44,935 nt of DNA. It comes from a virus. The notes under the pieces were generated by a model that saw only the letters and a list, made by a program, of their open reading frames with translations, was not told where the DNA came from and did no database searches. The DNA lies in IMG/VR virus record IMGVR_UViG_3300050033_000118, positions 1 through 44,935 of that record. One strand, written 5' to 3'. How positions within the stretch are numbered: position 1 is the stretch's first letter; each line of letters opens with the position of its first letter. Positions 5,233-44,935 of this stretch are shown piece after piece. Both the position numbers and the translations under genes were made by a program.

Positions 5233-8004
5233 TCATGGCAACCTGTTAATTTGTATCCAAGTGTATACCTGATCAGGATTGTTGGTATTAACTGTTGCGC
5301 CAAGATAGTCTAAGCGAATCTGGTTTGTGGTAGTTGGACAATCAAATATATACGTCATCGGGTTAACAATGTTTCCTTGATATAGCCGTCCCATGACGTT
5401 TCCGTCCTTTACTGCCGCAAAGTAAGATGCCCCCCCCTTCATGAAGTAATTTGCAACCATTATGTATCTGCCGGGAATACTCGGAGAAAAAATACCGGTG
5501 TTTATGTTCCAGCAATTACCGTAATTATATAGCACAGTAGGAAATAGCACCGTGGTCTGCGAGGCGGGAAAAACTTGAGAGCTATTTTGATATGCCGACA
5601 CTCCCGGCCCCACTTGCCATGAGGCGTTTCCGAGGCCACCTGTATCGCAAAGGAATGCGGAATTACTCAACGTACCGCCCGTGACCTGCAACGCCGACAC
5701 GCTCGCCGCGCCGTTGCTGATCGTGTGTCCGTTCAGGTTGATGTTCCCGCCCATCGCCCCGCCGGTAAGGAGAAGTGTGTTGGTATTCAATATCGCCACC
5801 TGACCGCTGACACTTGCGCCCCAGTCGCCGCGATAGGCCGTGGAACTGGATGTGCCGTAAGATTGGACATAGAGCGGGGTGCCGGTAGCCCCGCCAGCCG
5901 CTATGATGCCTGTCGCATTGTTGGATACCGCCCCCACCTGCGCCGCCGTGGTCGGGATCGCGTTGCTGGTTGCGAGGTTTTCGGTCTTTGTCGCCACGTT
6001 CGTCGCGTCCACCTGCACCACGCCAGCCTTAGTGATCGTCCAATTCATGCCGTCAAAACCGGATTTCCATGAAATGTTGCCGGTAGAGGTAGAACCGTAG
6101 ACCACAGTGAGGGCGCTTCCCTCTTCGGCATCATAATAAGACCCGGTAACGGTTAAAAAACTTGATGTTTTTGACAACCAATACAACACCTGATAGTCAG
6201 GCATAATTTTATATTGATCGGGATAAAAGATATTTGTCGCAATCACGCTTCCATAAACATTCGTCCAAACCATCGCGGGCAAAGAACTATAAACTTGATA
6301 GTAGATACCAGTCTCGATCACTGGCCACAATATTCCCATGTTCCCGGTTACTAATAAATTTGTGCCCACTACAGCACCCACCCATGCCACCTGTTGCGTG
6401 GCGTTGTAGCCTGACCAGCCGGACACCGCGTTCGTCGCGCTCAGGTTCGGTTGAGGACCGCCCGGAACGGCGATCTGCACGCTACCGTCCGTGGAGACGA
6501 TGTTGGTGATGCTGCCAGCGCCCCCGCCCGCGTTCGTCCGAACATTCAGCGCGAGCACTCCCGCGTTAGTTGTCACGCTGGACGCGTTTGTGCTCTCCGC
6601 AACAGTCATGCCGGTGATCGTACCGAGATAGGTTTCGTTGGTCAGCCATCCGGGATTATTCGTAAGTGCCGCCAAGTAGCGGGCATCATTTGTCGGAACG
6701 TAGCCAACGACATTCGTGAGCCATCCGGGGTTATTGGTTAAAGCCGCAAGATAGCGAGCATCAGTCTTGTCCACCTTGCCGGTAGATAAGGATGTGATCT
6801 GACCCTGAAAGTTTGACGGGTCGCTGTTGAGGTAGAAATACGACGGCGCGTGGGACTGCCATGTGCCGGGATAGTCGTTGGTATTGGCAAGACCATTTGT
6901 AGACGGGATGGATGGGGTATTCGTAAAGTTGGCGTAGTTAAGATAAAAGCTGGGAAGATGCGCGCCAAATGTGCCCGCCCAGTCGCCGGTGTTGGATTGG
7001 ACATAGGTATTCGTTGACAGCCAATTAGTAAAGATTGATCCAGTCTCATTAGTCAACCAGCCCGGATTCACCTTAATGTAGGTGTTCGTGTTCAACCAGC
7101 TTATGAACGCCGCCTCGTTTGTCAGCCAACCGGGGTCAAACTTGACATAGGTGTTGGTCGAAAGCCAACTTATGAATTCGGTCTCATTGGTCAAGAATGG
7201 AACGTCGTTGTTATAATCCGACAAATTCGTGGACATTGCCGCAAGATCATTGTTGTATTCCGATAGGTTTGTCCAAGTCCCCGGCGAACCATTTGTTAAA
7301 AAACCGGGATTAGATTTGACATAAGCATTGGTGTCAAGCCAGTTGGTAAATACAGGGTCAACTTCAACCTTGACGTAACTATTCGTTGATAGCCAATTTG
7401 TAAAGGCCGGTTCTGTTTCGTTGGTCATTCCTCCGCTACCTGTATTCGTTGCCGTCAGCACCAACCCGTTCCACAACAATCCGCTACCTATCTGGTTTGT
7501 GTGGATGGCTGCGCTGTCGGTGGTGTTGGTGCTACCGCCACCTGTTTCTGTAATCCTGCGAAAACTGTAATTGCGAATTTGCGAAAGCATGTTTTCGCTG
7601 ACATGCGTATATTCCGGCGAAGGCTGTTGCGGAAATCCCGCACTATTTGTTGACAATGAACACACCGCCGCATATCCAGCTACCATACCAACATCACTAC
7701 TTCCACCTTCCGCATACACAACTTGCGCTGTTATTACAGTGGCATCCGCATAAACCAAGTTTGTTATCACCCAGCCGTCCACAGAACCAAGAATGTTCTC
7801 CGTGAACAGATATTGCCCGTTGGTCACATTCAATCCAGTGAACCCTACCACTGATAAATCATAAAAGTTACCAGACACCTGATAGCTGACATTTGCCACT
7901 TGCTCAACATAGGACTGGACATCAAGTTCACCCTGCACCAAGGGCGGTGAGGCGAACACTAATCCAGCAACAAGAATAAAAAATGAAGCTAAAAATCGTT
8001 TCAC
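5233..8004 (-). CDS. Large secreted-type fibre-like protein (923 aa) with signal peptide and Thr/Asn-rich repeats
   Basis: A long fibre-like protein starting with GTG, which overlaps the upstream stop. Residues 1-25 (MKRFLASFFILVAGLVFASP) are a textbook Sec signal peptide. From about residue 195 to 465 there are many short repeats built on W-L-(S/N)-T-N-x-Y-V-K and NPGWLTNE, typical of beta-rich fibre shafts. The last third is less repetitive and ends in a beta-rich domain (residues about 790-923) that could be a receptor-binding tip. Size, repeats and place before two other fibre-like genes suggest a tail fibre or adhesin. A signal peptide is unexpected for a virion protein assembled in the cytoplasm. 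Confidence 0.75.
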   Translation of the reverse strand: MKRFLASFFILVAGLVFASPPLVQGELDVQSYVEQVANVSYQVSGNFYDLSVVGFTGLNVTNGQYLFTENILGSVDGWVITNLVYADATVITAQVVYAEGGSSDVGMVAGYAAVCSLSTNSAGFPQQPSPEYTHVSENMLSQIRNYSFRRITETGGGSTNTTDSAAIHTNQIGSGLLWNGLVLTATNTGSGGMTNETEPAFTNWLSTNSYVKVEVDPVFTNWLDTNAYVKSNPGFLTNGSPGTWTNLSEYNNDLAAMSTNLSDYNNDVPFLTNETEFISWLSTNTYVKFDPGWLTNEAAFISWLNTNTYIKVNPGWLTNETGSIFTNWLSTNTYVQSNTGDWAGTFGAHLPSFYLNYANFTNTPSIPSTNGLANTNDYPGTWQSHAPSYFYLNSDPSNFQGQITSLSTGKVDKTDARYLAALTNNPGWLTNVVGYVPTNDARYLAALTNNPGWLTNETYLGTITGMTVAESTNASSVTTNAGVLALNVRTNAGGGAGSITNIVSTDGSVQIAVPGGPQPNLSATNAVSGWSGYNATQQVAWVGAVVGTNLLVTGNMGILWPVIETGIYYQVYSSLPAMVWTNVYGSVIATNIFYPDQYKIMPDYQVLYWLSKTSSFLTVTGSYYDAEEGSALTVVYGSTSTGNISWKSGFDGMNWTITKAGVVQVDATNVATKTENLATSNAIPTTAAQVGAVSNNATGIIAAGGATGTPLYVQSYGTSSSTAYRGDWGASVSGQVAILNTNTLLLTGGAMGGNINLNGHTISNGAASVSALQVTGGTLSNSAFLCDTGGLGNASWQVGPGVSAYQNSSQVFPASQTTVLFPTVLYNYGNCWNINTGIFSPSIPGRYIMVANYFMKGGASYFAAVKDGNVMGRLYQGNIVNPMTYIFDCPTTTNQIRLDYLGATVNTNNPDQVYTWIQINRLP
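6610..7425 (-). repeat. Degenerate coding repeats in the fibre gene
   Basis: Repeated units of roughly 60-90 bases encode variants of NPGWLTNE...FISWLSTNTYVKF and DARYLAALTNNPGWLTN. At least eight partial copies can be read. Copies differ at many third positions, so they look old and kept at protein level. Confidence 0.7.
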
Positions 8005-8534
8005 GTTTTAGACCTTTCCAGATATAAGGCTGCCGAATGAAGAATAGCAGGATTATCTTTTGCTACTCCCAAAATAAAATTACATCCAAAACATAACAAG
8101 CCCCTAACTGTCTTAGATTTGTGGTCATGATCTACGCAAAAATTCCTGCTAAATTCGCTATTACATATTGCACATTTGCCGTTTTGTTTTTTTATTAAAT
8201 CGCAAAGAACATCAGAAGTAACTCCATAACGGTGTTTTCGATCTCTACTTAAACCACATGATTTGCAAAGCCTTGAATAACCATTTTTGAAAGACCTGGT
8301 TTTATCAAACAAAAAACTGGACTTTATTTCTTTACAAGAAGGACATTTTATAAATTCTTCTTTGCTGTAATCCTTTTTATTATTTTTTAATCTATTTTGG
8401 GCATAAAAACTTTTGTGAAATTCATTTACGCATTTTTTGCACTGAACTTGTATTCCGTATTTCAATCGCTTGTTTTTATGAAACTCGGAAAAAGGTTTGT
8501 CTTTTTTACATTTCGGACAAATTTTTGTTTCCAT
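8001..8534 (-). CDS. Recombination endonuclease VII-type HNH nuclease (177 aa)
   Basis: The N-terminal half has two zinc-ribbon-like units (CPKCKKDKPFSEFHKN, CPSCKEIKSSFLFDK) ending in extra C-x2-C pairs. The C-terminal part (about 104-160) reads YGVTSDVLCDLI, CAICNSEF, CVDHDHKSKTVRGLLCFGCN, the conserved core of the endonuclease VII family: a DHDH catalytic motif flanked by zinc cysteines. Such genes act as Holliday-junction resolvases or as freestanding homing nucleases. This one is clearly more AT-rich than its neighbours and lies between two fibre genes, overlapping the next start, so a mobile nuclease is the better reading. No good ribosome site is visible before its ATG. Confidence 0.88.
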   Translation of the reverse strand: METKICPKCKKDKPFSEFHKNKRLKYGIQVQCKKCVNEFHKSFYAQNRLKNNKKDYSKEEFIKCPSCKEIKSSFLFDKTRSFKNGYSRLCKSCGLSRDRKHRYGVTSDVLCDLIKKQNGKCAICNSEFSRNFCVDHDHKSKTVRGLLCFGCNFILGVAKDNPAILHSAALYLERSKT

Positions 8535-34040: not shown

Positions 34041-34069
34041 CTAATACCATTTTGTAGCTCCAATGTCAA
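34041..34069 (-). promoter_or_regulatory. Strong sigma70-like promoter for the head operon
   Basis: TTGACA and TATTAG are separated by 17 bases on the minus strand. The sequence around the -10, GGTATTAGGCGAA, is identical to that of the promoter at 36767. It overlaps the last codons of the GIY-YIG gene, so head genes downstream need not depend on read-through. Confidence 0.75.
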
Positions 34070-34686
34070 GCGTTATTTTTACATCTAAGTTTTGCGGCTA
34101 CACGCATTCTTTGTCGCGATTCTTCGGAACGATGCTGGCCTCTAAGTGCATCGGCTCTTTTCTTCTTCGTTTCGTCAGATTGATGCCTACCTCGTAGCCA
34201 TAGTTTAGGCTTTCCTCTATGACCTTCTGCTATTTTGCGTCGTGCTTCCTCGGACTGATGCCTACCCTTCATTGGAGATGGTCTGCCCATAAGGGCGACA
34301 GAAAGTTTGAGACGTGATTCCGCCGAAGGAGATTTGCCTTTGTGTGATAAAGATGACTTGCGCCTCGTTTCTTCTGATGGATGATGCCCGATATTTCCAC
34401 CCATTCTTAGATTGTAACCAAACTCCGGTTGATCGCTTTTATAATGAATAATCCAAAGACGTTCCTGAATATCCAATAGTCCTTCTTGCGTTTCCTCTAA
34501 AACACGAAACTCAAGATTGTCTTCTCCATATTTATGGAACGCAGCTTGCAGATGAGCATTGACGTGATTGTTGCCTCTTAATTTAGAAAGATGTCCACGC
34601 TTTCGCACACCAATATCCACGCTCTGCCCGATATACCACTTGCCGTTGGTAGTATTCTTAAATCCGTATATACCACAAATGCTCAT
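34066..34686 (-). CDS. GIY-YIG homing endonuclease with NUMOD3-like repeats (206 aa)
   Basis: The catalytic GIY-YIG domain (about 1-95) shows GIYGFKN at the start, KWYIGQS, a conserved arginine (VRKRGH) and the metal-binding glutamate region (DIQERLWIIHY). Residues 100-200 contain four or more NUMOD3-like DNA-binding repeats of the form HQSEEARRKIAEGHRGK. This is a freestanding homing endonuclease of the Seg type. It begins in an overlap with the portal gene and ends at the head promoter, so it sits at a junction between two conserved blocks. Confidence 0.92.
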   Translation of the reverse strand: MSICGIYGFKNTTNGKWYIGQSVDIGVRKRGHLSKLRGNNHVNAHLQAAFHKYGEDNLEFRVLEETQEGLLDIQERLWIIHYKSDQPEFGYNLRMGGNIGHHPSEETRRKSSLSHKGKSPSAESRLKLSVALMGRPSPMKGRHQSEEARRKIAEGHRGKPKLWLRGRHQSDETKKKRADALRGQHRSEESRQRMRVAAKLRCKNNA

Positions 34687-36766: not shown

Positions 36767-36795
36767 CTAATACCAAAAAAACAAGCACTTGTCAA
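36767..36795 (-). promoter_or_regulatory. Strong sigma70-like promoter for the portal gene
   Basis: TTGACA, 17 bases, TATTAG on the minus strand, about 50 bases upstream of the portal ATG. The -10 surroundings (GGTATTAGGCGAA) repeat those at 34041. It overlaps the last codons of the 87-aa gene. Confidence 0.75.
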
Positions 36796-37055
36796 GAACC
36801 AATTTTATTACCACGCCGCTCAACATAATCAACAAGCATACGCAACTGATTGTTTTTAACATCAGAGCTCATCCTGTTATACCGCTTGTACAACCTTCCC
36901 GCAAACACATGCTGTCCCGGCGTCCGCCTCTCCATCGAATAAACATTCTTGCAAAACGCCTTCTCGTACGGCGTCATGTCCTTCCAGTGATGGCGCACGA
37001 GCCAGTCCAGTTTGCGGCTGGTAGGATGGAAGCGAGTTGCAAAGGGATCGCTCAT
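36792..37055 (-). CDS. Small basic protein (87 aa)
   Basis: The ATG at 37055 has GAGG upstream and is preferred over a GTG two codons earlier. The protein is helical and basic, with FHPTSRKLDWLVRHHW, MTPYEKAFCKNVYSM and NRMSSDVKNNQLRMLVDYV. A nucleic-acid-binding role is possible from charge. It precedes the portal promoter and follows a run of zinc-ribbon proteins. No family recognised. Confidence 0.7.
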   Translation of the reverse strand: MSDPFATRFHPTSRKLDWLVRHHWKDMTPYEKAFCKNVYSMERRTPGQHVFAGRLYKRYNRMSSDVKNNQLRMLVDYVERRGNKIGS

Positions 37056-37062
37056 TGACACC

Positions 37063-37269
37063 TCAATAGTAATCGCAATGAAGTTTATGCCCGCACTTAG
37101 GACAATGGCACCCGCCAGTATCCACGGGCTCGTTAAGAAACTTCAGCCACTTCTTTAACTGCTTGCGGGTTGGAACACATACGATCTGACTATCTGGTTT
37201 GCGTTCCAGTCCGAGAGTTTGTTTGGGAGATACCATTTCTGATATACTGGTTTTAGACTTACGCTTCAT
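37063..37269 (-). CDS. Small zinc-ribbon protein (68 aa)
   Basis: The ATG at 37269 has a GAGGTTG ribosome site; longer frames run back into the upstream gene. The body is basic (MKRKSKTSIS, TRKQLKKWLKFLNEP) and the end is a compact cysteine knuckle, CHCPKCGHKLHC. The product looks like a nucleic-acid-binding or protein-binding zinc mini-protein. The function is unknown. Confidence 0.65.
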   Translation of the reverse strand: MKRKSKTSISEMVSPKQTLGLERKPDSQIVCVPTRKQLKKWLKFLNEPVDTGGCHCPKCGHKLHCDYY

Positions 37270-37276
37270 GACAACC

Positions 37277-37594
37277 TCACTTCTTTGGCGGCTCGTTGAT
37301 AATCTTCTGCGCCTCTTCCTCAAGCACTCCCCCAATGACCTTGTGTATGGCATTCTGCTGTTGGGAGACTTCGCGCTGACTGACGATTTGTTTCTCGATG
37401 CCTTCAATATCGCCCATCTTATCGGCCGTCCGGTATCCGCACGGGCACGACACGATTACCACCCATGTTTTGAAGTTGATCTCGGCGCCTATCTTGTCGC
37501 CCAGGCACTTCGGACACTTGGCTCCCTTGGCAAATATCGCCGCGGCTATCATGTGCGCTATGGACTGTTTCTCGGCGGGCGTCAGTGTGAGCAT
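37277..37594 (-). CDS. Zinc-finger protein between terminase and portal (105 aa)
   Basis: The N-terminal helix (TPAEKQSIAHMIAAAIFAKG) leads into CPKC, then after a strand CPCGYR, a C4-type zinc ribbon. The C-terminal third is a helix rich in Glu, Gln and Lys. It overlaps the previous gene by 13 bases. Small zinc proteins in packaging operons may help head or terminase assembly, but no specific role is known here. Confidence 0.7.
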   Translation of the reverse strand: MLTLTPAEKQSIAHMIAAAIFAKGAKCPKCLGDKIGAEINFKTWVVIVSCPCGYRTADKMGDIEGIEKQIVSQREVSQQQNAIHKVIGGVLEEEAQKIINEPPKK

Positions 37595-37977
37595 GGTTTT
37601 TTTTCCTTTGGTTTAACCCTCAACGCATCCGGCATCTCGTTTATCCACTTGAACGGGTTGGGCTCATCGCGCCAGCCGATCTCGACGCCGACGGAGTTGA
37701 GCAGACGGACTTGTAGCATCTTGCCTATGGCATAAGCACTGGCAAGATCAGCGACGTTAGACAAAGACTTATGCCACTTCGGTTTCTTCCTTGCCCATCG
37801 TTTCGCTACCTTGGCAAACTTCCTCGCCGCCTGCCTGGTCCACTGTCGCTTGCGATACACACGCTTCGGTTTCATGTCTTTCCCTTTCACAACGTAAAAC
37901 GACTCAATACGCCCGATCCGTCCTATATGTCCAAATCCTGCGCCCTTATATGATCCCATTGGAGAAAACTTACTCAT
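37582..37977 (-). CDS. Basic hypothetical protein (131 aa)
   Basis: The start at 37977 overlaps the upstream stop (ATGA) and follows GAGAGGA; a longer frame lies inside the upstream gene. The N-terminus is Gly-rich (YKGAGFGHIGRIGRI). The middle is strongly basic and helical (KPKRVYRKRQWTRQAARKFAKVAKRWARKKPKWHK), suggesting nucleic-acid contact. The end is a mixed domain with a Trp-Lys-Asn pattern. No family recognised. Confidence 0.65.
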   Translation of the reverse strand: MSKFSPMGSYKGAGFGHIGRIGRIESFYVVKGKDMKPKRVYRKRQWTRQAARKFAKVAKRWARKKPKWHKSLSNVADLASAYAIGKMLQVRLLNSVGVEIGWRDEPNPFKWINEMPDALRVKPKEKKPCSH

Positions 37978-38606
37978 GTCCTCTCTCTCCATGGCCACCG
38001 TTCCATCGCCACCAGCGCACACGTCAGCGCATACACGGCCGGGTATAGCGCCAACTCCACGGAGCCCAACGCGCCCTGGCATTGACGGGCTTGATCCTTT
38101 ATCGCTGCTGACGATTGCTTGAGCCGTTTGGTGTTAATCAGACTCCAAAATACCGGCAACACCTGGTCGTCAGATTGCCAGGGAATCTCGATAAACGCCG
38201 GTTTGGGAGACACCATCTCCGACCTCAAGACCTGCATCAAGTATGTTCTGTGGACAAGTTCCGGAGCATTGTAATAAAAGTAATGGCAAAAATATCGCGC
38301 CCAACAGTTGTTTAACCAGTTGGCAATCCCCTCAAACGTCATGCGCCCATTCTCCAATATCGGATCAATGCACCGAAACTCTATGTCCTCAAACACGGTA
38401 TAACACTTCGTTTGCAGATTAAACCCGACCATGACGGCGTGACCGATGGCAATCCCGCCGGCGCCGGTCCTCGGGACCACTGGCCAGCATATTCCACCGC
38501 GCAGGTAATATTCCCCCGTCAGCGGGTTAGAGTCGTCGTTGTCAAAGCGCAGGTTTGATGTCTTGCGCTCCGCGTCATACGTTGATTGTGTCGGTGCTTC
38601 AATCAT
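37974..38606 (-). CDS. Unknown protein downstream of TerL (210 aa)
   Basis: It starts in an ATGA overlap with TerL and ends in an overlap with the next gene. The N-terminal half is beta-rich (GGICWPVVPRTGAGGIAIGHAVMVGFNL). The middle is aromatic (NNCWARYFCHYFYYNAPELVHRTYLMQVLR) and the C-terminal part is helical with a hydrophobic stretch (LALYPAVYALTCALVAM). No catalytic motif is recognised. It is not a typical procapsid protein by sequence. Confidence 0.65.
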   Translation of the reverse strand: MIEAPTQSTYDAERKTSNLRFDNDDSNPLTGEYYLRGGICWPVVPRTGAGGIAIGHAVMVGFNLQTKCYTVFEDIEFRCIDPILENGRMTFEGIANWLNNCWARYFCHYFYYNAPELVHRTYLMQVLRSEMVSPKPAFIEIPWQSDDQVLPVFWSLINTKRLKQSSAAIKDQARQCQGALGSVELALYPAVYALTCALVAMERWPWRERT

Positions 38607-40000
38607 ATTTCACTATCCTCCAGCGTACCAACCTTTACCGGAGACGGTCCGGACACCGACGCGCCGATGGGACGTGCCATCACCGCGTGACAAACGGAAT
38701 CAACCGCGTGGTCCTCAAGACGACTATCAATTTCCTCGGTGTCATGCGGATCCACTTGCATGAGTTGAACGGTCCGGATGAAGTCGCTACAGGAGTTATA
38801 CACGACGAACATGGGCATCTGGCCGGCCGTTACCCGTAACCGTTGGTGTAATTGCCTGAATTTAAGCTTCCTGTTGGCATCCCCAGGCGCCATCTGTAAC
38901 CCCGCCTGAGCAAATACCTCGGCCGTGGACGGTCCTTGGCCACCCCCGCGGTAATCCGGCTTGCGGTTGAAGCAGGTCGGATCGCACAACCGCGTGATAA
39001 ACCGGCCGCTTATCCCCTCGCGCTTCTCGTGCGCCACTATCCGCTCGGCAATCTCGGCGTCAGTCTGGCGCAGGCCGACATCCATACCACCCGGCATGGC
39101 GCCGTAAAGCTCGGAAAACAGATACAGCCGGCCGTCCTGGTCCACCCAGAACCACTCCGCGGCGTAAGGCTTCCCAAAGCCCCAGTCAAAGGTCATATAA
39201 AGCGGCGCATTGGCCGGCACTGGCAACGGCTGAATGACATGGACCGCCGGGTTGAAGGCGAACGCCTGCTCGGTGAACACGTCCCAGCGGCCTTCCTTCC
39301 AAGCCAAGCGAAGAGGCTCGGGAAGGGTGTTAAGCATGTCCCAGTAGGACTTCGGCAGGCTCGGATTGTCGGAAGGCAGAGCCGGCACGAAGGCAAACTC
39401 CTTGGCTTCTGCCTGTAGTTCCGGCGGGAATATCCGGTCTATCCAGTAGGACTTCACCCACTGGTGCCCAATTCCGCCAGGATTGGACGTAGCGACGAAC
39501 CGCGGTGTCTTTATCCCTGGCCAGCGTAACGAGCCACGGAGCATGTTAAACGTGCTTAGCGGGTTTTTGGTTAACTCGTCCACGCCGATCATGGCAAACT
39601 CGGCAGACTGATATCGGCTGGCATCGTCCAAGTTACGGAGCGCCATAAACCCATGACCATCCCGAATATGAAAACCAAGACCCTCCGTCACAGACTTGCG
39701 AACCTCGCCAAGATCCCTCGGAAACTCCGCAACTATCTTGCTAATCTGCCGGTCCGTCAGGCTCACATAGTCTTCACAGAACAGCGCCACATGGACATTC
39801 TTCATATTTTCATTACCAGTATCAATCCATTCTTGCCGCGCCCGTAAAAGATATTCCAGCAAATACCAACGGATCCACCGGCTCTTCCCTGGTCCCCGCG
39901 ACCCACCAAATAGGGTGTATTTGTGGGTGTTAGCCGCGTCACACGCCTCCAACTGCTTAGGCCAATAATTAAATTTTACTTCAATTTTGCTTGTTTTCAT
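38603..40000 (-). CDS. terL: Terminase large subunit
   Basis: A 465-residue packaging ATPase and nuclease. Walker A is GGSRGPGKS (32-40), Walker B is AMIGVDE (ending D141 E142), and coupling motif TSNPGG is at 171-176. The nuclease domain shows the acidic positions FDWGFGKP (D272), the E-L-Y-G segment near 297, LCDPTC (D340) and DHAVDSVCHAV near the end. All key residues are present. It would cut concatemeric DNA and drive it through the portal. TerS lies upstream beyond a 237-base gap. Confidence 0.93.
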   Translation of the reverse strand: MKTSKIEVKFNYWPKQLEACDAANTHKYTLFGGSRGPGKSRWIRWYLLEYLLRARQEWIDTGNENMKNVHVALFCEDYVSLTDRQISKIVAEFPRDLGEVRKSVTEGLGFHIRDGHGFMALRNLDDASRYQSAEFAMIGVDELTKNPLSTFNMLRGSLRWPGIKTPRFVATSNPGGIGHQWVKSYWIDRIFPPELQAEAKEFAFVPALPSDNPSLPKSYWDMLNTLPEPLRLAWKEGRWDVFTEQAFAFNPAVHVIQPLPVPANAPLYMTFDWGFGKPYAAEWFWVDQDGRLYLFSELYGAMPGGMDVGLRQTDAEIAERIVAHEKREGISGRFITRLCDPTCFNRKPDYRGGGQGPSTAEVFAQAGLQMAPGDANRKLKFRQLHQRLRVTAGQMPMFVVYNSCSDFIRTVQLMQVDPHDTEEIDSRLEDHAVDSVCHAVMARPIGASVSGPSPVKVGTLEDSEI

Positions 40001-41045: not shown

Positions 41046-41423
41046 CTATTCATTTTTTCGTTCCAACCAGTCATAAAATTTTTCAAATTCATATTCATCT
41101 GGTTCGTTCACGCCGCGCTTGTCGCACCAAGTTTGAAAAGCGGCATCAATACGCTTGCCTTCTCTAATATTAGACTGTGCCGTTGCTCTTAAAGAATCGG
41201 CTTTTTCATGGCAATTTTGGCAAACTATTTGAAGGTCTTCCATCCGTTCATGGCCCAACCGTTCATAAGTCAAGTGATGAACAAAAAGATGACGAGACCC
41301 CCAACCGCATATTTCGCATCTTTTCCCGCGTTGCCAAAACAATATTCTACGGGTATTGTGCCATGCGGCAGATTTTAGATAGAGGTTGTATTTTTGTCGC
41401 CATTCATATTCTTCGTTTGTCAT
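41046..41423 (-). CDS. HNH endonuclease (125 aa)
   Basis: The start at 41423 follows GAGG and lies 1 base past the helicase stop; the longer frame runs into that gene. The HNH core reads CEICGWGSRHLFVHHLTYERLGHERMEDL, then VCQNCH, with zinc cysteines (CEIC, CQNC) around the catalytic HH. N- and C-terminal helices are charged. It may be a freestanding homing nuclease or a packaging-linked HNH nuclease; it lies close to terS with the repeat cluster between them. Confidence 0.85.
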   Translation of the reverse strand: MTNEEYEWRQKYNLYLKSAAWHNTRRILFWQRGKRCEICGWGSRHLFVHHLTYERLGHERMEDLQIVCQNCHEKADSLRATAQSNIREGKRIDAAFQTWCDKRGVNEPDEYEFEKFYDWLERKNE

Positions 41424-41424
41424 T

Positions 41425-42828
41425 TTATTCCTCTTTGCGTGGATACCACTTACCAACAACTGATTTTGAGCATTTAATTTCCTCGGCTATTTTGGCGTAG
41501 GAATAGGATGGGTGTTCGTTGGCCATCATAATGATTTTTTTGCCCATTTCCGAAGACTTATTTGGCTCGGATTGATCGGATGGAACAGTCCAATATGGTT
41601 CGTGAATGGATGGAGAATGCTGAATCATTAAATCGCGCACAAGTCCGCCAGTTCCATTGTCGAGTCCGTTGCGTTCGGCGTTCTTCCCGAAGCGAAGACG
41701 GTATTTTGTGTCGTCGTCCTGATAGCCAGTAATTTCTGCGGAAGTGCGCGCCCATGCCGCGATAGCCTGTGAACCTACGGCCATGTACACGGATTCGCGG
41801 GCGGTCCACTGTTCACGATCATGTGGCTTCGGGGTATGAGTAACGAGCAAAAAGGCGCAATTATGCTGTTTGATGATGCGGTTTAGGTTAAAATTGAAAG
41901 CAAGGAACGTCGAAGCATCATTAATGTTCATGCCGGCCGGGATGAAGTTTTGATACGGATCGAGGATAAAAAGGTCAATGGATTGCTTAATAATCTGGTT
42001 TTCTACCCAGGCGTCGAGCGATGAACCCTGAAGGCCATATACATGATGAATGGATAGGTTTTCCTGAACCAAAGCGGTGTCAGCCTTGAGAAATTTGACG
42101 ATGGATAGTATGTCACGCTGGAGTGTTTCTTCGTCGTTTTCAGCCTGAATATAAAGTACACGCGCTGGTGCCGGGACTTTGAGACACCCAAGAATAGGCA
42201 ATCCAGAAGCAACTGAAACGGCTATTTGTTCGGCCAGAATGGATTTACCAAGCGATGTGCCTCCAGTCAGAAGGCAACCGCCGCCGCGCCGAAGCCACCC
42301 GTGGCCGGCAATAATGTGGCCTTCTGGAACGGTGTAATTAACGAGGTCAAGATACCGGATAGATGGAAAACGATCCTCGTCTGACTTGGCGTGATCGGTG
42401 AGCGCGGTTTGAATCAGGCCGTTTAGACGTTGGCATTCCGATAATTCACCTTGAGCAACGGCTTCTTTCAATTCAATTTCAAGCATGGATATTTTGCGAA
42501 TGGTGTGCCATTCCATCAGTATGTCCATGTAATATTCCGCGTGTGCCGCCGTAGGAATGGAATCCAGCAATCCATTTAGGTATGCCGTGCCACCAATCTT
42601 ATCAAGCCCTACTTGTCCGAGTTTTTCGGCAACGGTCAGAACATCTATAGGCCGTTTTTCATCGGCCATAATCATCAGGGTTTTCCATAAATAGGCGTGT
42701 GGCGGATGATGGAATGCGTCGGGGAGAAGTTTCTTTTGAGTGACGGCGAAAGGCATTACCTTATCGGCGTCGAGGAGTGCGGCGCCGAGAACACCCATTT
42801 CTGCCGCTTGATTAGATAGTTGATTCAT
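41425..42828 (-). CDS. Replicative helicase, DnaB N-domain fused to RepA-like ATPase (467 aa)
   Basis: Residues 1-105 match the DnaB N-terminal domain (AAEMGVLGAALLDADKV, DVLTVAEKLGQVGLDKIGGTAYLNGL). The ATPase domain has Walker A GGTSLGKS (189-196), VLYIQAENDEE, and Walker B DLFILDPYQNFI. In its details (YIQAEND, VTHTPKP) it is closer to RepA-like hexameric helicases than to classic DnaB. The C-terminus is a short helix-turn-helix (YSYAKIAEEIKCSKSVVGKWYP). It would unwind DNA at the replication fork. No primase or polymerase is present in the window, so host enzymes or missing phage genes must complete the replisome. Confidence 0.88.
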   Translation of the reverse strand: MNQLSNQAAEMGVLGAALLDADKVMPFAVTQKKLLPDAFHHPPHAYLWKTLMIMADEKRPIDVLTVAEKLGQVGLDKIGGTAYLNGLLDSIPTAAHAEYYMDILMEWHTIRKISMLEIELKEAVAQGELSECQRLNGLIQTALTDHAKSDEDRFPSIRYLDLVNYTVPEGHIIAGHGWLRRGGGCLLTGGTSLGKSILAEQIAVSVASGLPILGCLKVPAPARVLYIQAENDEETLQRDILSIVKFLKADTALVQENLSIHHVYGLQGSSLDAWVENQIIKQSIDLFILDPYQNFIPAGMNINDASTFLAFNFNLNRIIKQHNCAFLLVTHTPKPHDREQWTARESVYMAVGSQAIAAWARTSAEITGYQDDDTKYRLRFGKNAERNGLDNGTGGLVRDLMIQHSPSIHEPYWTVPSDQSEPNKSSEMGKKIIMMANEHPSYSYAKIAEEIKCSKSVVGKWYPRKEE

Positions 42829-43003
42829 GTTTTCCTTTCAATTCTTTCAATTCGCTCAATGACTTGAGATCAGACCGCATCCAGTCAATTTCAGACTTCA
42901 CGGCTTGCAAAAAAATGTCTGGGCAGTTGGCGGCTTCGAGATTGGTCAGCAGGCGGGCTTTGTGGCGGTTGCAAATTCTATCTGCGTCAGTCAGCGTTTC
43001 CAT
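42812..43003 (-). CDS. Small helical protein, first gene of the minus operon (63 aa)
   Basis: A helical, charged protein (DADRICNRHKARLLTNLEAAN, FLQAVKSEIDWMRSDLKSLSELKELKG), probably a helical hairpin. It overlaps the helicase start by 17 bases and has a ribosome site (AAAGG) and a strong promoter (43038-43065) upstream. It may be a helicase partner such as a loader or regulator, judged only by position. No family recognised. Confidence 0.7.
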   Translation of the reverse strand: METLTDADRICNRHKARLLTNLEAANCPDIFLQAVKSEIDWMRSDLKSLSELKELKGKHESTI

Positions 43004-43037
43004 CGCTCAATCCTTTCTTGCTTTCAAACTACCCCAT

Positions 43038-43065
43038 ACTATACACCTATTCAAATCTTTGTCAA
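43038..43065 (-). promoter_or_regulatory. Strong sigma70-like promoter for the helicase operon
   Basis: TTGACA and TATAGT separated by 16 bases on the minus strand, 35 bases upstream of the first gene of the operon. Both boxes are near consensus. Confidence 0.7.
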
Positions 43066-43109
43066 TTCCAAACTAAATATATTTTCACATTTTAATCCAC
43101 GCGCGTAAT

Positions 43110-43137
43110 ATACTACCATATTTTGGGAGTAAGTCAA
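43110..43137 (-). promoter_or_regulatory. Second leftward promoter candidate
   Basis: TTGACT and TAGTAT separated by 16 bases on the minus strand, about 70 bases upstream of the first leftward promoter. The spacer ends in GG before the -10, as in the head-operon promoters. Possibly a tandem early promoter. Confidence 0.4.
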
Positions 43138-43233
43138 TCGTTATTTTGGGGCCTGATTATCCACGCGCTCCAGATGCTATCAAGTCGCCGACGGGAGTCA
43201 ATCATTTTGCCGAAACGATCCGCGTAAATTTAT

Positions 43234-43260
43234 TTAACAAAATCACAAAACTTGTATAAT
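43234..43260 (+). promoter_or_regulatory. Rightward promoter candidate
   Basis: A perfect TATAAT preceded by TTAACA at 15 bases. The spacing is short, but the region is AT-rich and the rightward operon must start near here. Confidence 0.35.
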
Positions 43261-43408
43261 CTTGCAAATATATCGTTTTGACGTAGGCGGGCATTGATAG
43301 GAAAATTGCGCGATAATACAACATTTTGTTTGCGATTTTTGTTGCACAGAAATATAGATATGTTAAATTATAAGCATCGGAACAAAAAAGACGAACTGGA
43401 AAGCGTCA

Positions 43409-43549
43409 ATGAAAACCCAAAACAAAAAACAAACCCCGGCCCTCACGCGTCCCGCAGTCGCCCTGATTGCGGCTTTCCAGTGCGTGGGGTGTCCGGGCGC
43501 TCGGCCCGGAGAGACCGGGATGGAACAAGGAAACAAGGGGAGAACATGA
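43409..43549 (+). CDS. Small protein at the head of the rightward operon (46 aa)
   Basis: The frame begins MKTQNKKQTPALTRPAVALI and contains FQCVGCPGARPGETG, with one C-x2-C pair. GGAAAG lies upstream and the end overlaps the next ATG as ATGA, supporting real translation. A different, longer frame covers the same bases (see rejected items). No family recognised. Confidence 0.55.
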   Translation: MKTQNKKQTPALTRPAVALIAAFQCVGCPGARPGETGMEQGNKGRT

Positions 43550-43752
43550 CCATAAAAATCACATACGAAAAATCGGGATTGAATAAACACGGATGGGATT
43601 ATGTTGCCCGGTGTGCGCTGACTGGTGACGGTGCAAGAGCCAGCACGCCGCAAGAAGCCGCTCATATCTTGGCCGGTCGGATACTCAAGCCGGGGCAATC
43701 CTGTATGATAGAAAGCGCGACAAGTTACAACGGGGCAAGGATTACAGCATAA
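43546..43752 (+). CDS. Small hypothetical protein (68 aa)
   Basis: The ATG at 43546 follows AAGGGGAGAAC and overlaps the upstream stop; the longer in-frame form lacks a ribosome site. The protein is a mixed alpha/beta miniature (MTIKITYEKSGLNKHGWDYV, TPQEAAHILAGRILKPGQ). No family recognised. It belongs to a chain of small accessory genes. Confidence 0.7.
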   Translation: MTIKITYEKSGLNKHGWDYVARCALTGDGARASTPQEAAHILAGRILKPGQSCMIESATSYNGARITA

Positions 43753-43786: not shown

Positions 43787-43999
43787 ATGAAAAATAAAAT
43801 TTCAGCTTCTGAAATGCAATCAATCCGTGACGGTGACAGAGGTTTCCGCAGGATTAAAACCATCGAAGAAACACAGGCGTTGTTAAATGAAGCGGCAGAC
43901 AATAACGCCCGCGACATAGCAGAAGGCATAATTGAAGACATAGAAATTGAAGAAGAAATTATTGAGGAAAGCACAAAAGACCAAGATCATCCATATTAA
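43787..43999 (+). CDS. Small acidic helical protein (70 aa)
   Basis: A helical protein whose last third is very acidic (IIEDIEIEEEIIEESTKDQD). A strong ribosome site (CAGGGGG) precedes the ATG. Acidic phage mini-proteins sometimes mimic DNA or bind host regulators; nothing here shows that directly. The structured RNA candidate begins 8 bases after its stop. Confidence 0.65.
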   Translation: MKNKISASEMQSIRDGDRGFRRIKTIEETQALLNEAADNNARDIAEGIIEDIEIEEEIIEESTKDQDHPY

Positions 44000-44006
44000 A
44001 AATTAA

Positions 44007-44166
44007 GTGCGTGCGATTAGGCTATCCGGCAACCTGATAGGGTGTTAACCCGTCTGTGGGTTAGAACGCAGACCGAGGATGAAAGCATCTTGTTAAAAGC
44101 CAATAAGCCGTTACTCTGCAATGTGTAAACCGAAAGCGGGGAAGTACGAGCCGAACCCGCACGCAC
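44007..44166 (+). ncRNA. Structured noncoding RNA candidate (about 160 nt)
   Basis: GTGCGTGCG (44007-44015) and CGCACGCAC (44158-44166) form a perfect 9-bp closing helix. Inside are CTATC/GATAG (44022/44036, 9-base loop), TAACCC/GGGTTA (44046/44058, 6-base loop) and GCAGA/TCTGC (44068/44115). Within the last are AGGATG/CATCTT (44076/44086) and CCG/CGG (44130/44137), both with AAAG loops. The loop GTCTG (44052) also pairs with CAGAC (44069), which would make a pseudoknot or a competing fold; GCGGG (44136) can pair with CCCGC (44156). No frame with a ribosome site crosses it. It could be a cis-acting leader of the next gene or a free RNA. I do not recognise the family. Confidence 0.7.
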
Positions 44167-44211
44167 AATTTAACGCAACGATAGAAAACAACGAGCGAAA
44201 GGAAACACACC

Positions 44212-44439
44212 ATGACACCTACGAAGGCAACGCACACTATGACACCCTATGACGCAACGCTGGCAGGCTTAGACGCTGGAGCGGCTGGCATCCGGTTAGA
44301 GATGGACAACGGAACGCTTAAAGCATATCACAGCGAAGACGGCGTGCTCTTATTGGATGTCAAAAACGTAAAGGCCGGAACATGGGATGCTATCTGGGCG
44401 TTAATGAAGGCAAGCGGAGATGTGCAATTTTCGGCATGA
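44212..44439 (+). CDS. Small hypothetical protein (75 aa)
   Basis: The protein reads MTPTKATHTMTPYDATLAGLDA then GIRLEMDNGTLKAYHSEDGVLLLD, a small beta-rich domain, and ends WDAIWALMKASGDVQFSA. GAAAGGAAA lies upstream; an internal ATG ten codons in is an alternative start. It follows the RNA element by 45 bases and is the gene that element would control if it acts in cis. Confidence 0.65.
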   Translation: MTPTKATHTMTPYDATLAGLDAGAAGIRLEMDNGTLKAYHSEDGVLLLDVKNVKAGTWDAIWALMKASGDVQFSA

Positions 44440-44535: not shown

Positions 44536-44935
44536 ATGAAGATCACAAAGAACTGGCTCAAAGAAAAGTCGGCGTGTGTATCAGGAGAGGACTGGTTTAA
44601 CGCGCAAGAAGAAACCAATGACGTGAAGATCGTCCAAAAACTCATGATTGAGAAACGCTTCGATTGGGCCAACTGGCTCATCGTGCGGATCATGGAGCGC
44701 AAGCAATATCTTGCATACGCTATCTTTGCGGCTCGGGAAGTCTTATATATCTTTGAGAAGAAATACCCTGACGATAAACGCCCCCGGAAAGCAATAGAAG
44801 CGGCAGAAAAATATCTGGCAGACGATTTTCTTGAGAATCAAAATGCCGCCGCCGCCGCCGCCGCCGCCTACGCCGCCTCCGCCGCCGCCGCCGCCGCCTA
44901 CGCCGCCGCCGCCGCCTCCGCCGCCCCCTACGCCG
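44536..44935 (+). CDS. Imm-5-like protein with alanine-repeat tail, 3' end cut by window
   Basis: The first 104 residues (MKITKNWLKEKSACVSGEDWF, DWANWLIVRIMERKQYLAYAIFAA, EKKYPDDKRPRKAIEAAEKYL) match a family common in phages and bacteria that I recognise as the Imm-5-like putative immunity domain. From residue 104 the chain becomes almost pure alanine with Tyr or Ser every few residues, and the frame is still open at the edge. A strong ribosome site (AAAGGAG) precedes the ATG. The function of phage members is unknown; the immunity label comes from toxin-immunity contexts. Confidence 0.7.
   Translation, partial: MKITKNWLKEKSACVSGEDWFNAQEETNDVKIVQKLMIEKRFDWANWLIVRIMERKQYLAYAIFAAREVLYIFEKKYPDDKRPRKAIEAAEKYLADDFLENQNAAAAAAAAYAASAAAAAAYAAAAASAAPYA
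44845..44935 (+). repeat. GCC-triplet repeat encoding polyalanine with Tyr/Ser
   Basis: Runs of GCC broken by TAC, TCC and one CCC up to the end of the window. It is prone to slippage and to assembly breakage. Confidence 0.9.

What the first reader, a model, noticed from the sequence alone, without database searches (positions are those of the whole stretch)
44007..44166. Unrecognised structured RNA with a perfect 9-bp closing helix and a possible pseudoknot
A 160-nt gene-free stretch folds into a closed multi-branch structure with five further stems. A hairpin loop can pair with a strand that also belongs to another stem, which suggests a switch or pseudoknot. It lies in an accessory operon of a phage.
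Basis: partly seen in the sequence, partly recalled or inferred. Interest (0 to 1): 0.8.

Follow-up and report, generated by a model that had tools for sequence, protein, structure and literature searches.

The report
Orphan folded RNA between phage genes
A 160-base stretch between two small genes of an uncultured phage would fold into a compact, self-contained RNA shape somewhat more stably than chance predicts, but it matches no known RNA and no second copy could be found anywhere, so its function, and even whether it has one, cannot be settled from sequence.

Summary
Window 44007-44166 (+) is a non-coding 160-nt stretch in a 212-nt gap of a small-gene operon on a viral contig. It has the stated perfect 9-bp closing helix, and energy folding gives a closed, branched structure (-55.7 kcal/mol; z -3.1 to -3.3; 0-1 of 200 shuffles), stronger on this strand than on the other. 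The domain keeps its fold in longer contexts and leaves the next gene's ribosome-binding site outside it. No Rfam family matches. The evidence is nevertheless modest: the window ranks third of 224 sampled, and a perfect 9-bp inverted repeat arises in 3.5% of shuffled gaps. The 'pseudoknot' strand pairing is matched by 5.5% of all 160-nt tiles, and the hairpin it needs has predicted probability about zero. No homologue was found by sequence or covariance model; the two near sister contigs (terminase 87% and 98%) do not cover the region. Covariation, the decisive test, could therefore not be run. Best reading: an orphan, autonomously folding intercistronic mRNA element (stability, processing or insulation); chance folding remains a serious rival. 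The switch or pseudoknot claim is not supported beyond chance.

The parts
44007..44166 (+). folded intercistronic RNA domain
   Evidence: MFE -55.7 kcal/mol, z -3.13 / -3.32; minus strand z about -1.1; closing helix probability 0.99 also inside the longer mRNA
44007..44015 (+). 5' arm of the 9-bp closing helix
   Evidence: exact complement of 44158-44166; 3.5% of shuffled gaps contain such a repeat
44158..44166 (+). 3' arm of the 9-bp closing helix
44028..44104 (+). arm A: irregular hairpin (22-24/93-95, 29-40/78-89, 43-52/61-73 in RNA numbering), the most unusual part energetically
   Evidence: -27.0 against shuffle mean -16.4, z -3.5, 0 of 200; helix probabilities 0.68-0.95
44109..44148 (+). 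arm B: hairpin 103-105/140-142 and 108-113/130-135 (RNA numbering)
   Evidence: helix probabilities 0.67-0.82
44046..44073 (+). site of the proposed pseudoknot: UAACCC/GGGUUA hairpin whose loop GUCUGU pairs with GCAGAC
   Evidence: 15 of 1000 shuffles and 31 of 560 tiles do as well; the hairpin itself has probability 0.0
43787..43999 (+). upstream ORF (70 aa, acidic), ends 7 nt before the domain
   Evidence: codon score +23.7; no Pfam or PHROGs match
44212..44439 (+). downstream ORF (75 aa); ribosome-binding-site-like AAAGGA at 44198-44203 lies outside the fold and is mostly unpaired
   Evidence: codon score +13.2; accessibility; no homologue
44536..44935 (+). Imm5-like gene, open at the contig end
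   Evidence: Pfam Imm5_like E 5.5e-8, phrog_38757 E 5.3e-36

Best explanation
The stretch is an intercistronic element of the + strand operon mRNA: a self-contained folded domain, closed by its 9-bp helix, sitting between the 70-aa and 75-aa ORFs and leaving the downstream ribosome-binding site free. Most likely it acts in cis as a structural barrier or processing and stability boundary between the upstream and downstream cistrons, letting their mRNA levels differ. Shown: position, non-coding character, closing helix, better-than-shuffle folding of the sense strand, insulation from the flanks in the folding model. Inferred: transcription as one mRNA, folding in the cell, and the function.
For: Sense-strand folding beats shuffles while the antisense strand does not, as expected of a transcribed RNA. 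The 212-nt gap is long beside its neighbours of 34 and 96 nt. The domain is the same in the 160-, 212- and 311-nt folds, and the closing helix keeps probability 0.99 in the 653-nt mRNA while the ribosome-binding site stays mostly open. No intrinsic terminator-like site and no separate promoter-like site on the + strand in the gap, which favours read-through over an independent gene.
Against: No homologue and hence no covariation. The energy signal is only moderate: third of 224 sampled windows, whole-gap z -2.4. Promoter scans use the sigma-70 consensus only and the host is unknown.
Confidence: 0.4

Rival explanations
1. The fold is incidental: a non-functional spacer (or decayed gene remnant) that happens to fold well, noticed because the endpoints were chosen at a chance 9-bp inverted repeat.
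For: 3.5% of shuffled gaps hold a perfect 9-bp inverted repeat; a second unrelated 9-bp repeat lies nearby (44037-44045 / 44242-44250); two sampled windows inside coding regions fold even better relative to shuffles; no homologue anywhere searched.
Against: No shuffle of 100 has any 160-nt window as stable as the best one in the gap; arm A alone is beyond 200 shuffles; the signal is on the sense strand only.
Confidence: 0.32
2. A discrete phage non-coding RNA gene (trans-acting small RNA or ornate RNA) released from, or transcribed within, the operon.
For: A compact closed domain with A+T-richer, mostly unpaired flanks has the look of an excised RNA.
Against: No + strand promoter-like or terminator-like site in the gap; no match to any Rfam RNA family, phage-linked ones included; no family found.
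Confidence: 0.14
3. A ligand- or protein-responsive regulatory switch for the downstream ORF and Imm5-like gene, using alternative pairings (e.g. 44037-44045 with 44242-44250 inside the ORF, or the proposed pseudoknot).
For: Alternative helices exist at 10-30% probability; perfect 9-nt complement to the start of the downstream ORF.
Against: Ribosome-binding site not sequestered; the long-range pairing has probability 0.0001; pseudoknot potential at chance level; no terminator/antiterminator.
Confidence: 0.1

Closest known systems
Orphan candidate structured RNAs of phages and metagenomes (e.g. motifs of Weinberg et al. 2010, PMC2864571)
   Same: Non-coding, intergenic, branched fold with a closing helix, in phage or metagenomic DNA
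   Different: Those motifs rest on several homologues with covariation; here there is one sequence and no homologue
Cis-acting intercistronic mRNA structures in polycistronic operons (stability or processing elements; from general knowledge)
   Same: Position between cistrons, self-contained fold, free downstream ribosome-binding site
   Different: No transcript, processing site or effect is shown; usually simpler hairpins
Large ornate phage-associated RNAs (GOLLD, ROOL; PMC12286853)
   Same: Multi-branch non-coding RNA on a phage contig
   Different: Much larger families (from general knowledge); no Rfam match here

Membership tests
Any of the 4227 Rfam 15 families | covariance-model score at or above the gathering cut-off | tested here: not met
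   0 matches in the window; only chance matches, E 2.4 and 6.2, to unrelated families on the minus strand with permissive filters
tRNA / tmRNA | ARAGORN-detectable fold | tested here: not met
   0 genes in the window
Conserved structured RNA family (comparative-genomics criterion) | homologues with compensatory changes | not testable with these tools
   no homologue found in phages, plasmids, viral records, or phylum samples of possible hosts
H-type pseudoknot | hairpin and loop-strand helix both favourable and beyond chance | tested here: not met
   15 of 1000 shuffles and 31 of 560 tiles match it; hairpin probability 0.0 in the nested ensemble; pseudoknot energies were not computed
Riboswitch-type attenuator | aptamer followed by terminator or sequestered ribosome-binding site | tested here: not met
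   no + strand terminator in the region; ribosome-binding site mostly open
Discrete small RNA gene | own promoter and terminator or defined processed ends | tested here: inconclusive
   no sigma-70 promoter-like or terminator-like site in the gap on +; processed ends need RNA data

The most novel reading that the evidence does not exclude
A new class of phage structured RNA, restricted to a rarely sampled phage lineage and so absent from Rfam and from the collections searched, with a branched core closed by a 9-bp helix and a function in the early operon.
Probability: 0.17. Interest if true: 0.55.

Novelty: new member of a known kind. Interest (0 to 1): 0.25.

Why it matters
If real, it adds an orphan structured RNA to an early phage operon in a lineage distant from cultured phages. 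The practical value of this check is to separate what a single sequence shows (a moderately unusual fold) from what it cannot show (a pseudoknot, a switch, a new RNA class).

Tried and rejected
Homology: blastn in phages and plasmids, three DNA-pattern scans of IMG/VR, nhmmer against fetched loci, neighbour-protein and terminase scans, whole-record searches of related viral contigs and phylum samples of possible hosts: none gave a credible homologue. Short matches around 44012-44049 (two viral contigs, Bradyrhizobium plasmids, 65 pattern hits) were followed up and rejected: they are 15-36 nt long (one nhmmer extension to 61 nt at E 0.006 in a locus preselected by BLAST at E 2), mostly look like coding sequence, and do not extend into the rest of the structure. 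A protein-coding reading of the gap was not supported by codon usage (one short open + frame, 35 codons without a start, was not scored separately). The control with other folding parameter sets returned identical numbers, so the sets evidently did not load; robustness to parameters is untested. One search timed out and was replaced.

Full report
Setting. The window is a complete IMG/VR virus record of 44,935 bases. It carries a terminase large subunit, a head-tail adaptor or portal protein, a major head protein and a DnaB-like helicase, all on the minus strand. At the right end a + strand series of short ORFs runs away from the helicase gene: 43546-43752, 43787-43999, 44212-44439, and 44536 onward, an Imm5-like gene cut by the contig end. 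The finding lies in the 212-nt gap 44000-44211.

Is the observation there? Yes in its main points. The 9-nt arms are perfectly complementary. No + strand frame in the gap looks coding, while three of the four neighbouring ORFs score clearly positive and the fourth, 43546-43752, about zero. The 160 nt fold to -55.7 kcal/mol, z -3.13 with 1 of 200 shuffles as good and -3.32 with 0 of 200 in a second run. The antisense strand is unremarkable. Arm A (44028-44104) alone gives z -3.5, and no shuffle of 100 had a 160-nt window as stable as the best in the gap. The domain is unchanged in 212- and 311-nt folds and its closing helix has probability 0.99 in the 653-nt mRNA.

How much is that worth? Moderate. 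Of 224 windows sampled over both strands of this genome it ranks third, the whole gap gives only z -2.4, and the endpoints were chosen at the inverted repeat, which 3.5% of shuffled gaps also possess. [quoted passage not shown] The accepted criterion for new bacterial motifs is variation that conserves pairing among homologues (PMC2864571).

The pseudoknot. GUCUGU (RNA 46-51) can pair with GCAGAC (62-67), and the flanking UAACCC/GGGUUA could form a hairpin around GUCUGU. In the nested ensemble the first helix has mean probability 0.95 and the hairpin about zero. An equal or better hairpin-plus-loop pairing is found in 15 of 1000 shuffles and in 31 of 560 tiles of the window. It is not evidence of a pseudoknot or a switch. 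The 9-nt complement between 44037-44045 and the downstream ORF has pairing probability 0.0001.

Known families. No Rfam match and no tRNA or tmRNA.

Homologues. None was found. Direct blastn in phage records, plasmids and the whole operon region in phages gave only chance matches or none. Terminase alignments brought in over 150 related viral contigs and 31 bacterial loci, among them Desulfovibrionaceae, Verrucomicrobia, Kiritimatiellae and Clostridia. Neither nhmmer nor a covariance model of the single sequence found the RNA in those searched; the model finds the window copy at 204 bits, so it works on a positive control. Contigs with the Imm5-like gene also lack it, as do phylum samples of 388 and 395 genomes. 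The two close sister contigs, L278 (terminase 87%) and L326 (98%), start at or inside the terminase gene and run the other way, so they do not cover the gap.

Mechanism. The anatomy that is shown, a self-contained sense-strand fold between two cistrons with an accessible ribosome-binding site after it and no + strand promoter or terminator site within the gap, fits a cis-acting intercistronic element that sets an mRNA processing or stability boundary. This is an inference at about 0.4. Incidental folding is nearly as likely (0.32); a discrete small RNA (0.14) and a regulatory switch (0.10) are less so.

Conclusion. An unmatched, moderately supported structured stretch in an orphan phage operon; not a demonstrated pseudoknot, switch or new RNA class.

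Noticed in passing
window 43391-43485 (+): A second structured stretch upstream in the same operon: 20-nt inverted repeat, 85% complementary, z -2.8, 2 of 200 shuffles. It would sequester the GGAAAG ribosome-binding-site-like sequence before the small ORF 43409-43549 by pairing with GCTTTCC inside that ORF.
   Followed up: partly
window 44839-44935 and 1-310: The contig ends inside a GCC-rich, alanine-coding repeat of the Imm5-like gene and begins inside a pentapeptide-repeat gene. Several other viral contigs with the Imm5-like gene also end within a few hundred bases of it (L387, L389, L391, L394, L396), which suggests assembly breaks at this repeat.
   Followed up: partly
L278 and L326 against window 36792-40000: In sister contig L278 the terminase is only 87% identical while adjacent small proteins are 97-100% identical, which looks like local recombination or gene replacement.
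   Followed up: no
window 8001-8534, 34066-34686, 41046-41459 (-): Probable free-standing homing-type endonucleases: two HNH-like ORFs and a GIY-YIG-like ORF overlapping the start of the portal gene's neighbour. Only 41046-41459 was tested, with a marginal Pfam HNH match (E 3.8e-4, just under the cut-off).
   Followed up: partly
window 43003-43409: About 400 nt of divergent regulatory region; the surrounding 1.9 kb has more promoter-like sites than shuffles (8 against 3.1), the best TTGACA-16-TATAGT on the minus strand towards the helicase gene.
   Followed up: no
L090:2035-2162 and L136:8599-8726: A pattern hit shared by two viral contigs looks non-coding and possibly structured, with repeated GAAAGC motifs, but is unrelated to the finding by sequence.
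   Followed up: no
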